Assembly (NCBI RefSeq): GCF_019968905.1
Contig: NZ_CP079946.1
Location: 4,960,001 to 5,024,000, forward strand
Direction of reading: 5' to 3'
Origin: Corallococcus sp. EGB
GTDB lineage: Bacteria > Myxococcota > Myxococcia > Myxococcales > Myxococcaceae
Length of the DNA: 64,000 nucleotides
The stretch's first letter is position 1. Each line of letters begins with the position of its first letter. The notes under the pieces were generated by a model. The model had not been told where the DNA came from, searched no databases, and was given only the letters and a program-made list of their open reading frames with translations. Made by a program: the position numbers and the translations under genes. This document shows positions 58,401 through 64,000 of this stretch, piece after piece.

Positions 58401-61400
58401 GGACGGCACGAAGTGCACCGTCGTCACGTGCTCGCGGGCCATGAGCGCCACCAGGTAGTCCGGCTCCTGGTGTCCGCCGGGCCGCGCGAGCACCAGCCGC
58501 GCCCCCGTCATCAGGGGCCAGAAGAACTCCCACACGGACACGTCGAAGCTGAACGGCGTCTTCTGCAACACCGCGTCCGACGGCGTCAGGCCGTACCGCG
58601 CCTGCATCCAGCGCACGCGGTTGACGATGCCCGCGTGCGCGTTCATCGCGCCCTTGGGACGGCCCGTGCTGCCCGACGTGAAGATGACGTAGGCCAGCGA
58701 ATCCTCCCCCGCGAGCAGCGTGGGACGCGTCGTGGACTCACGCGCGAGGACCGCCCCTCCCGCGTCCAGCGCGAGGACGTGCGCGGAATGCGAAGGCAGC
58801 GCGGCGCGGAAGCGCTCCTGGGTGAGGAGCACGGGCGTGGCGGTGTCCTCCAACATCCCCGCGAGCCGCTCCGGGGGCGTGGCCGGATCCAACGGGACAT
58901 AGGCCGCACCGGACTTCAGGACGCCCAGCAGGGCGATGACCATCTCCAGGGAGCGCTCCAGGCAGACGCCCACCAGGATCTCTGGCCCGACGCCGCGAGC
59001 CCGCAGGTGGTTCGCGAGCTGGTTCGCCCGGGCTTCGAGCTGCGCGTACGTGAGGCGCTGGTCCTCGAACTGGAGCGCGATGGCCTCCGGCGTACGCTCG
59101 GCCTGGGACTCGAAGAGCTGATGGAGCGTGGCGCCACGAGGGGCCTCCACGCGCGTGTCGTTCCAGCCGCGCAGCACCTGCTCGCGCTCGGCTGGCGTGA
59201 GCAGAGACAGCGTCGCGAGCGGGGCCTGCGGAGCCGCGACGACCTCCCGCGCGAGCACCACCAGGTGCTCCGCCATGCGCGCCATGGTGGCTGCATCGAA
59301 GAGGGCGGTCGCGTACTCCAGGTGGGCGGCGATGCCCGTGCGGCTCTCCAGGACCTCCAGGGACAGGTCGAACTTGGCCGTGTCGACGGGAATCACCACC
59401 GGGCTGAGCTCCAGCGACGGCAGGTGCCCCCGGGCCTCTGGCGTGTTGACGACGTTGAGGACGACCTGGAAGACCGGCGTGCGGCTCAGGTCACGCGGGA
59501 GCTCGAGGGTCTCGAGGATTCGCTCGAACGGAGCATCCTGGCGCGCGTAGGCCTCCAGGGCCTGGGTGCGCACGCGGCCCAGCAGCTCCACGAAGGACGG
59601 CTGTCCGGACAGCCGGGAGCGAAGGGGCAGGGTGTTGATGAAGCAGCCCATCAGCCATTCGACCTCCGGACGCGTGCGGCCCGCGATGGGCGTGCCCACC
59701 ACGAAGTCCTCCTGGCCCGAGTAGCGCGACAGCAGCGTCTGGAAGAGCGCCGTCATCACCATGAACGACGTGGCGCCGTGCTTGCGGCCCAACGCCAGGA
59801 GCGGCGCGGACACGTCGGCAGGGAACGCGAAGCGGTGCCGCGCGCCCGCGAGGGACTGGCGGGCGGGACGCGGCCGGTCCGTAGGCAGCTCCAGCGTGGG
59901 CGCCCCGGTGAGCTGCTGCTTCCACCAGGCGAGCTGCGCCTCCATCGCGCCGCCTTCCAGCCAGGCGCGCTGCCACACGGCGTAGTCCGCGTACTGCACC
60001 GGCAGCGGCGGCAGGGGGGACGGCCGGCCCTCGCGGAACGCGGCGTAGTTCGCCGCCAGCTCATGCGCGACGACCATGTTGCACCACGCGTCGGAGACCG
60101 CGTGATGGAAGACGAGCGAGAGCACATGGACCCGGGGCTCCATGCGCAGCAGCGTCGCGCGCAGCACGTCCCGCTCCAGGTCGAAGGGCAGCAGCGCGTC
60201 AGCCCGGCAGAAGCGCTGCATCTCCGCTTCACGGGCCTCCGTCGTCTCGCCCGCGAGGTCCACGCGCTGGAGCGGCAGGCCGCGCGACGGGTGGATGACC
60301 TGCACCGCGCGATCTCCCTCCAGCGAGTACGTCGTGCGCAGCACCTCGTGCCGCGCCACCAGCGCGTCCAGCGCGGCCTGGAGCGCGTCCACGTCCAGCT
60401 CCCCGACGAGGCGGAAGAGGAACGGGTTGTTGTACGCGCCGCTGCCCGGCTCCAATTGCTGGAGGTACCAGAGGCGCTGCTGCGCGAAGGACAGAGGCAG
60501 CGGCCGGTCGCGACCCACGCGCGGGATGGGCGGCGGGCCCGACACGACGGCCGGGGCAGCGGGACGCGCCGTCGCCGCGGAGGCAGGGCGCACGGCGACG
60601 GGCGAGGCGCCGGCATGCGGCGATTCCATGGAGCCAGGGCGCGCGGCGACAGGCGACGCAGCGGGACGCGCCACGGGCGGAGGAGGGAGGCGGGACGGCG
60701 TGGCCACCGGCTCCACGCGGCCATCCGCGCGCAGCCGGGCATGGCGGCCGGTGCGGTACAACTTCGCGGCGGCCTCGCGGGGGTGCGGAACCAGGCGGCG
60801 GTGCTCCTCGTCGCCCGCGCGCCACAGCGCGGTGGGGAGCCCCGCGCCAGCGAGCGCCAGTTCGCCCACCACGCCCGCGGGGACGGGCTGGCCGGCCGCG
60901 TCCAGCACCCAGGTCTGGAGGTTCGCGGGGATGCGCTCCCGCGGCGTGCGCGGCAGGAGCGCGCCCTCCTGGGCGTCCCCGGACAGCCACACCTCCACGC
61001 CCGCGGCCCGGTGCAGCGCGGCTCCCAGCTCCACCGACGCGCCCTCCACCACCAGCGCGCCCACGTGGGCCAGGGACTCGCGCGCCCCGGGCAGCTCGCT
61101 CAGCGTGCGCGCCAGGCGGGCGGAGGTGTGCACCAGCACCGCGCCGGACGCGCGCGCCAGCGCCAGCAGTCCCTCCACGCCCGCTTCGGCCTCCACCAGC
61201 ACCTGCTCCTGGCGTACGGCCGCCTCGGCCTCCATGCGCTCGCGCACCACGGCCAGCCGGCGCAGGCCCTCCAGCACCACCGGCGTTTCAAGCCCGAAGT
61301 CGATGAGCGCGGCCACCTCGTCCACGTCCGCCGCGCGCACGTCGCGCAGCCGCTGGAGCGCTCCGTCCACCGTGCCGATGAGGCCCGTCGTCTTGGCGTG

Positions 61401-64000: not shown

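What the first reader, a model, noticed from the sequence alone, without database searches (positions are those of the whole stretch)
60521..62990. Luciferase-like flavin monooxygenase embedded in a decayed adenylation domain with no carrier protein
Between a C domain and the next C-A-T-E module lies an A-domain remnant. Motifs A3, A4 and A5 are destroyed, A8-A10 and the carrier protein are missing, yet a complete 345-residue LLM-class monooxygenase sits between the places of A4 and A5. Monooxygenase domains inserted in A domains are known, for example in MtaG/MelG of myxothiazol/melithiazol assembly, but there the A domain and carrier are functional. Here the A domain seems to survive only as a scaffold for the oxygenase. 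The enzyme would then have to act on a residue held by a neighbouring carrier (upstream, or the Ser carrier of module 2), or in trans, making this an unusual in-line tailoring station.
Basis: partly seen in the sequence, partly recalled or inferred. Interest (0 to 1): 0.82.

Follow-up and report, generated by a model that had tools for sequence, protein, structure and literature searches.

The report
Oxygenase housed in dead adenylation domain
In a giant peptide-making enzyme of a soil bacterium (a Corallococcus), an oxygen-adding enzyme sits inside a worn-out, carrier-less activation domain; the same arrangement recurs in many related bacteria, right after a polyketide step wherever that could be checked, so it is probably a built-in oxidation station rather than a decayed relic.

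Summary
In detail: a 341-residue TIGR04020 flavin monooxygenase (MOX) interrupts an A domain that has lost A3, A4, A5, the Asp of A7, A8-A10 and its carrier; no frame hides them. It is not a one-off. I annotated 50 such cassettes in Myxococcaceae; where upstream sequence is in view (45) the order is always KS-AT-ACP | C-A'(MOX)A'' | C-A-T, with a malonyl-type AT. The C domain before the shell reads HHxxxDT in 47 of 47 readable cassettes, against 0 of 119 other C/E domains and one truncated domain that I had filtered out. Cassette MOX domains form one supported group; the shell is under purifying selection. The oxygenase therefore most likely acts on the beta-ketoacyl chain on the upstream PKS carrier, as MupA does and PuwE is inferred to do, with variant C and pseudo-A as a carrier-less docking scaffold. 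Intact A-MOX-T modules also exist in the same genome. The myxoprincomide synthetase probably holds the same cassette (inference). Site of action is fairly confident, the exact product open. New variant of a known kind.

The parts
42450..63998 (-). part of the hybrid NRPS-PKS ORF that lies in the window (about 12.3 kaa in the genome, C1:5002450-5039463)
   Evidence: domain order
62985..64000 (-). variant condensation domain C_MOX (HHIVSDT, GYVAH); runs on to 64325 outside the window
62271..62984 (-). N-terminal half of the pseudo-adenylation shell (A'), motifs A3 and A4 lost
61248..62270 (-). LLM-class FMN monooxygenase domain (TIGR04020, MOX), WTPERHFHSFGG
   Evidence: signature read
60693..61247 (-). 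C-terminal half of the shell (A''): degenerate A5 region, A6/A7 remnants, ends before A8
60492..60692 (-). Pro/Ala-rich linker where A8-A10 and a carrier would be expected
   Evidence: no carrier or A8-A10 in any frame
59181..60491 (-). next condensation domain C_next (HHAVSDA), presumed to make the bond to Ser
57666..59111 (-). intact A domain, specificity residues DVWHMSLVD(K), Ser-type by recall of the code
57396..57581 (-). carrier (T) domain of the Ser module

Best explanation
The region is an in-line oxidation cassette that serves the PKS module directly upstream. KS-AT-ACP (malonyl-type, no ketoreductase found) leaves a beta-ketoacyl chain on its ACP, just outside the window (C1:5024413-5024601). 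The MOX domain, supplied with reduced flavin by a reductase from elsewhere in the cell, oxygenates the alpha carbon of that chain while it stays on the ACP. The pseudo-A domain no longer activates anything and has lost its mobile C-terminal subdomain and carrier; together with the variant C domain (HHxxxDT, G[YF]VAH) it holds the oxygenase in place and probably docks the upstream ACP. The next C domain then passes the oxidised chain to Ser. Shown: anatomy, conservation, constant PKS neighbour, loss of A motifs. Inferred: substrate, alpha-oxygenation, docking role. Open: whether the product stops at alpha-hydroxy or goes on to alpha-keto or loss of a carbon.
For: 50 cassettes annotated; KS-AT-T directly before the C domain in 45 of 45 with that stretch in view, the other 5 cut by the start of the contig or locus. 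KS TACST, AT HAFH and ACP GGNS in 45 of 45. AT-to-ACP gap 95-373 aa in cassettes; the five such gaps printed (L009, L078, L103, L104, L106) read as low-complexity, and Pfam finds no ketoreductase in the window's PKS module. HHxxxDT in 47 of 47 readable C_MOX; among 119 other C/E domains 0, and HHxxxDG in 11 of 11 readable C domains of intact MOX modules; G[YF]VAH in 47 of 47 C_MOX and in none of 46 C_next, 11 intact-module and 108 other domains. Cassette MOX: one group, support 100/99. Omega below 1 in all 13 pairs for A' (0.22-0.58) and A'' (0.07-0.47). Closest solved relative is PuwE (6KET), E 2.6e-106, part of a chain in which a PKS module is followed by aminotransferase and monooxygenase, inferred to give a 3-amino-2-hydroxy acyl chain (PMC4219810, passages). 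MupA, an LLM enzyme, hydroxylates the beta-keto thioester on its ACP but not the beta-hydroxy form or the free pantetheine (PMC10952193, passages). Two loci of another genus (L136, L139) have KS-AT-T then MOX-C-A-T with no shell; in L136 an aminotransferase lies between (L139 not scanned) and its MOX matches PuwE at E 8.9e-162.
Against: No product or enzyme assay is available. No flavin reductase of family PF01613 is beside the gene; the only hit of the genome is about 1 Mb away (other reductase families not searched). The C-domain tree puts C_MOX beside C_next (95/93) and not beside the C domains of intact A-MOX modules, so the simple story 'an intact C-A-MOX-T module lost its carrier' is not shown. 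C_MOX keeps both His and the Asp, so it may still catalyse something rather than only dock. HHxxxDT is not wholly private: one truncated E-type domain at the end of L088 reads HHLVVDT; the length filter left it out. Three cassettes (L123, L128, L134) have ERRFH instead of ERHFH in the MOX signature. Both structure models are of low confidence (mean pLDDT 44 and 56).
Confidence: 0.74

Rival explanations
1. The MOX acts on the Ser (or other residue) held by the downstream carrier, as in-module A-domain oxygenases do.
For: In MtaG/MelG and SolF the A-embedded oxygenase acts on the residue loaded by its own module (PMC10204066, passages). The next A domain has the Ser-type code in 9 of the 17 cassette loci in which it could be read.
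Against: In the other 8 of these 17 the next A domain has another code (for example DALHLGCLFK in L104, DAAISGEIWK in L115, DIQFVAQVVK in L116), whereas the PKS module before it does not vary in the motifs checked. A whole C domain lies between the shell and that module.
Confidence: 0.1
2. The cassette removes a carbon: MOX and C_MOX together turn the beta-ketoacyl chain into an alpha-keto-beta-amino acyl unit, like the 2-oxo-beta-leucine that I recall for myxoprincomide.
For: L101/L102 carry the cassette in open frames of 15473 and 14284 aa, the size class I recall for MXAN_3779, the myxoprincomide gene (named as such in PMC11619377, passages). C_MOX keeps HHxxxD but with a near-private variant.
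Against: The structure of myxoprincomide could not be read here (paper not held); the search that included 2-oxo-beta-leucine listed no paper with that term among the 30 shown of 41. Carbon loss is not needed by the anatomy.
Confidence: 0.14
3. A relic: the oxygenase module is on its way out and does nothing.
For: A motifs and the carrier are lost.
Against: Found in 16 of 16 genomes held of the genus, in open frames of up to 17.7 kaa, omega below 1 for shell and MOX in 13 of 13 pairs, the WTPERHFH signature kept in 47 of 50 cassette MOX domains.
Confidence: 0.02

Closest known systems
MtaG / MelG (myxothiazol, melithiazol): monooxygenase in the A domain between a4 and a5
   Same: insertion site between A4 and A5, flavin monooxygenase (as stated in PMC10204066, passages)
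   Different: there Gly is loaded and alpha-hydroxylated and the chain is cut to an amide; here A is dead, no carrier, a PKS module precedes
PuwE (puwainaphycin synthetase; OX domain solved as 6KET)
   Same: closest solved sequence; oxygenase between a PKS module without reducing domains and the next NRPS module (PMC4219810, passages)
   Different: there an aminotransferase precedes the oxygenase; no A shell or extra C domain is described
MupA / OocM alpha-hydroxylation bimodule of trans-AT PKS
   Same: LLM oxygenase that needs a beta-ketoacyl-ACP; a further KS0 domain takes part (PMC10952193, passages)
   Different: there the oxygenase acts in trans and the extra domain is a KS with its own ACP; here everything is in one chain and the extra domains are a variant C and a pseudo-A without carrier
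Intact A-MOX-T modules of myxobacteria, e.g. L011 in this genome
   Same: same oxygenase family at the same place in the A domain
   Different: A motifs kept in the six aligned, own carrier, HHxxxDG in 11 of 11 readable C domains; in L011 an acyl-ligase-carrier start precedes, not a PKS module
Myxoprincomide synthetase MXAN_3779 (BGC0000393)
   Same: probably holds the orthologous cassette: 27 of 27 genomes of genus g19, which I take for Myxococcus/Pyxidicoccus, have an A' hit, and that BGC is reported as conserved in Myxococcus and Pyxidicoccus (PMC12766979, passages)
   Different: identity of the gene is inferred; the 2012 paper was not readable here; PMC12766979 does not list the cluster as conserved in Corallococcus
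MOx inside A2 of crz-like (corallorazine) clusters of Serratia and Pseudomonas
   Same: oxygenase in an A domain (PMC11342130, passages)
   Different: Gly-activating A domain of a lipodipeptide NRPS; no dead shell in the passages seen

Membership tests
TIGR04020 (MupA/Atu3671-type LLM monooxygenase) | score above the curated cut-off over the whole model | tested here: met
   487.3 bits against 244.45, positions 1-340 of 341
TIGR04020 (MupA/Atu3671-type LLM monooxygenase) | FMN-dependent oxygenation | not testable with these tools
   needs an assay
functional NRPS adenylation domain | motifs A3, A5, A7 Asp, A8, A10 Lys | tested here: not met
   lost in the window and in all 12 cassette rows aligned; kept in 6 of 6 intact MOX-bearing A domains aligned
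functional NRPS adenylation domain | A-core fold | tested here: inconclusive
   model mean pLDDT 56 matches A cores (5n81 Z 31.8, rmsd 5.6, 357 aligned; 1amu Z 30.3, rmsd 5.7, 358 aligned) on both sides of the insert, but intact A domains were in its alignment
MtaG/MelG-type C-A(MOX)-T module | MOX between A4 and A5 | tested here: met
   position judged from the motif alignment
MtaG/MelG-type C-A(MOX)-T module | working A domain and own carrier | tested here: not met
PuwE-type PKS module with in-line oxygenase | KS-AT-ACP without reducing domains directly upstream of the tailoring block | tested here: met
PuwE-type PKS module with in-line oxygenase | aminotransferase before the oxygenase | tested here: not met
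   in the window synthetase a C domain and the shell stand there instead, no aminotransferase in Pfam; L136 has PF00202
canonical condensation domain | HHxxxDG | tested here: not met
   HHIVSDT in the window; HHxxxDT in 47 of 47 readable C_MOX
MupA-type alpha-hydroxylation bimodule | non-elongating KS0 and second ACP | tested here: not met
   no second KS or ACP between the PKS ACP and the Ser module

The most novel reading that the evidence does not exclude
The HHxxxDT / G[YF]VAH condensation domain is a distinct catalytic type: it does not join two carrier-bound residues but binds the upstream ACP and helps the oxygenase to convert, or to shorten, the beta-ketoacyl chain. C_MOX plus pseudo-A would then be a carrier-less tailoring module, the NRPS counterpart of the KS0 bimodule.
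Probability: 0.22. Interest if true: 0.78.

Novelty: new variant of a known kind. Interest (0 to 1): 0.52.

Why it matters
It gives a rule that can be read from sequence: KS-AT-ACP followed by C(HHxxxDT)-A'-MOX-A''-C means oxidation of the polyketide unit, with no residue to be added by the dead A domain; a product prediction that counts every A domain would add a residue that is never loaded. It also shows an A domain kept as a holder after loss of its chemistry, and names a C-domain variant (HHxxxDT) that can be tested directly. By profile the cassette is present in 54 of 55 genomes held of five Myxococcaceae genera (hits not opened one by one), so the oxidised unit probably matters to the bacteria. 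I did not find the shell described in print in the searches, but no search was made for HHxxxDT and the 2012 myxoprincomide paper was not held, so prior description is possible.

Tried and rejected
Hidden frameshift or carrier: rejected by a six-frame scan and by the same gap in related loci. Pseudogene: rejected by conservation and omega. Oxygenase fed by its own module: no carrier exists. Simple descent from an intact C-A-MOX-T module: the insertion site agrees, but the C-domain tree does not place C_MOX beside the C domains of intact modules, so origin stays open. First structure model (22 rows, mean pLDDT 44) was not used; the second (45 rows, 26 of them intact A domains, mean pLDDT 56) is only weak support, because the added rows lean it towards the A fold, and most of the MOX part is under pLDDT 60. 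A profile from the two paralogues alone (A1) does not separate all cassettes: L115, L116, L117 and L118 score only about 138-163 bits there but are cassettes by domain order; the broader profile A3 was used for the spread. In one search six of seven genomes of genus g7 match at E 1e-41 to 1e-45; I did not open those hits, and the five g7 TIGR04020 loci that I opened hold three intact modules and two PuwE-like ones. Papers: myxoprincomide structure not obtainable; searches on alpha-ketoamide and related terms led nowhere; the searches were seen as listings only. Passages of PMC4902038, PMC10196010 and PMC13252402 were seen and carry no argument here.

The domain counts rest on home-made HMMs seeded from this synthetase, so distant domain types could be missed. 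The 50 cassettes are not a random sample: 23 come from the A' search of named genomes, 20 from hits that I chose, 5 from 20 TIGR04020 loci that I chose from the capped list, 2 from the own genome. Rows dropped before the C-domain counts: C matches that do not reach from before model position 100 to beyond 200 (among them the truncated HHLVVDT domain of L088 seen), those not reaching 330. Two cassettes (L078, L084) end with their contig after A'', so the absence of a carrier behind them is not seen.

Full report
What is there. The window is C1:4960001-5024000 of a 9.43 Mb single-contig genome. The loci with names that a search with the A' piece returned are 21 from Corallococcus and 2 from one Myxococcaceae MAG, so the genus is taken to be Corallococcus. 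The finding lies in one minus-strand ORF that begins at 5039463, upstream of the window, and ends at window 42450, about 12.3 kaa. With HMMs built from its own domains the order is: acyl-AMP ligase-like start, three C-A-T modules, KS-AT-T, C, A' (model 3-211 of 473), MOX, A'' (308-381), C-A-T, an epimerase-like C-type domain, four more C-A-T modules (Pfam agrees for the parts scanned; the first ACP and the final thioesterase were only read in the translation). The first-stage reader could not see the KS-AT-T, which lies just beyond the window end.

The oxygenase is complete (TIGR04020 487 bits). Its host A domain is not: A3, A4, A5 and A8-A10 are gone, A7 lost its Asp, and the stretch to the next C domain is a Pro/Ala-rich linker without carrier in any frame. 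The 12 cassette rows in the motif alignment share these losses, while 6 of 6 intact MOX-bearing A domains aligned keep all motifs.

It is a conserved cassette. The A' piece is found in 16 of 16 genomes held of the genus (best hit E 1e-102 or better in each; weaker matches there include ordinary A domains). With a profile of ten diverse A' pieces, 60 of 195 genomes of the phylum match at E <= 1e-40, all in one family: 16 of 16 in g1, 6 of 6 in g3, 2 of 2 in g5, 3 of 4 in g6, 27 of 27 in g19, and 6 of 7 in g7, the last at 1e-41 to 1e-45 and not opened. I annotated 66 different MOX loci: 50 cassettes, 14 intact A-MOX-T modules and 2 with KS-AT-T before the oxygenase and no shell; in one of these two, L136, an aminotransferase lies between. 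The cassette MOX domains form one side of a branch with support 100/99; the tree is unrooted. In the own genome three TIGR04020 hits pass the cut-off: two cassettes and one intact module.

The neighbour is constant. In 45 of 45 cassettes with upstream sequence in view, KS-AT-T stands directly before the C domain; 5 of 50 are cut by the start of the contig or locus. In these 45 the KS has TACST, the AT HAFH (the malonyl motif, by recall) and the ACP GGNS. No ketoreductase was found in the window's module, and the gap between AT and ACP, 95-373 aa in cassettes, was low-complexity in the five cassette loci printed. So a beta-ketoacyl chain is expected on that ACP. The module after the cassette varies: a Ser-type code in 9 of the 17 loci in which it could be read.

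The C domain before the shell is a type of its own. It reads HHxxxDT in 47 of 47 readable cases; among 119 other C or E domains none does (98 G, 15 A, 3 unread, 1 each E, F, S). One exception lies outside that count: a truncated E-type domain at the end of L088 reads HHLVVDT. G[YF]VAH stands in 47 of 47 C_MOX, where the next C domain has N in 46 of 46; similar AHT spellings occur in a few other C domains. The next C domain reads HHxxxDA in 39 and HHxxxDG in 9 of 48. In a tree of 50 C domains (15, 14, 11 and 10 chosen per class) C_MOX is one group, 100/100, beside 13 of 14 C_next (95/93), and not beside the C domains of intact MOX modules.

The shell is held by selection, though less tightly than the oxygenase in most pairs. 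In 13 pairs omega is 0.22-0.58 for A', 0.07-0.47 for A'', 0.05-0.41 for MOX (Nei-Gojobori, GC-rich DNA, so rough). A model with mean pLDDT 56, A' better than the rest, matches A-core structures on both sides of the insert (for example 5n81, Z 31.8, rmsd 5.6, 357 aligned), in line with a holder that has lost the mobile subdomain; intact A domains in its alignment lean it that way.

How it most likely works. MupA needs a beta-ketoacyl chain on its ACP and does not hydroxylate the beta-hydroxy form or the free pantetheine (PMC10952193, passages). PuwE, the closest solved sequence, belongs to a PKS-aminotransferase-oxygenase-NRPS chain inferred to make 3-amino-2-hydroxy acyl units (PMC4219810, passages). 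The solanimycin paper states that flavin monooxygenases in PKS modules hydroxylate alpha to the thioester, and that in myxothiazol and melithiazol the insert lies between a4 and a5 (PMC10204066, passages). Put together: the PKS module makes the beta-keto chain, MOX oxygenates its alpha carbon on the upstream ACP, C_MOX and the pseudo-A hold oxygenase and ACP together, C_next joins the chain to Ser. The anatomy is shown; the reaction is inferred. Reduced flavin must come from elsewhere: the genome has one PF01613 hit, about 1 Mb away; other reductase families were not searched.

Link to a known product. In genus g19 all 27 genomes have an A' hit of 247 bits or more, in open frames of up to 17.7 kaa. 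[quoted passage not shown] another finds it or a highly similar cluster in its strains except Polyangiia and NCWAL01 (PMC10435759, passages). I infer, without a named sequence, that L101/L102 are that gene. I recall that myxoprincomide holds 2-oxo-beta-leucine, which would fit oxidation at this place, but could not check it.

Verdict. It is neither unique nor a relic. Interest 0.52: a specialist would not be startled by another A-embedded oxygenase, but the dead, carrier-less shell and the HHxxxDT domain as a conserved post-PKS station are useful and testable.

Noticed in passing
L010:2738-3450 (G000 C1 about 4360737-4361449); window 54165-54185: A 21-base near-palindrome (CCTGTCCGACTGTCCGACAGG, up to 2 mismatches) occurs 252 times in the genome, 0 in the reversed control. 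In the paralogous NRPS it is part of an array of about 12 copies of a 57-base unit inside the open frame of an A domain, ahead of A3; the window NRPS has an exact copy at 54165-54185. A mobile repeat seems to spread inside a synthetase gene.
   Followed up: partly
L136, L139 (two genomes of genus g7): KS-AT-T, then MOX-C-A-T without shell; in L136 an aminotransferase lies between and the MOX is very close to cyanobacterial PuwE (E 8.9e-162): a PuwE-like assembly line in myxobacteria.
   Followed up: partly
L123, L128, L134: Three related cassettes have WTPERRFH instead of WTPERHFH in the oxygenase, possibly a changed active site.
   Followed up: no
Corallococcus genomes G023, G024, G030 and others: Several hits of the A' profile per genome (six each at E <= 1e-35 in these three), so this type of synthetase seems to have multiplied in the genus.
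   Followed up: no
PKS module, L009 AT-to-ACP gap and the same gap in L078, L103, L106: Long low-complexity stretches of very different length (up to 373 aa) between AT and ACP of the PKS module that feeds the cassette.
   Followed up: no
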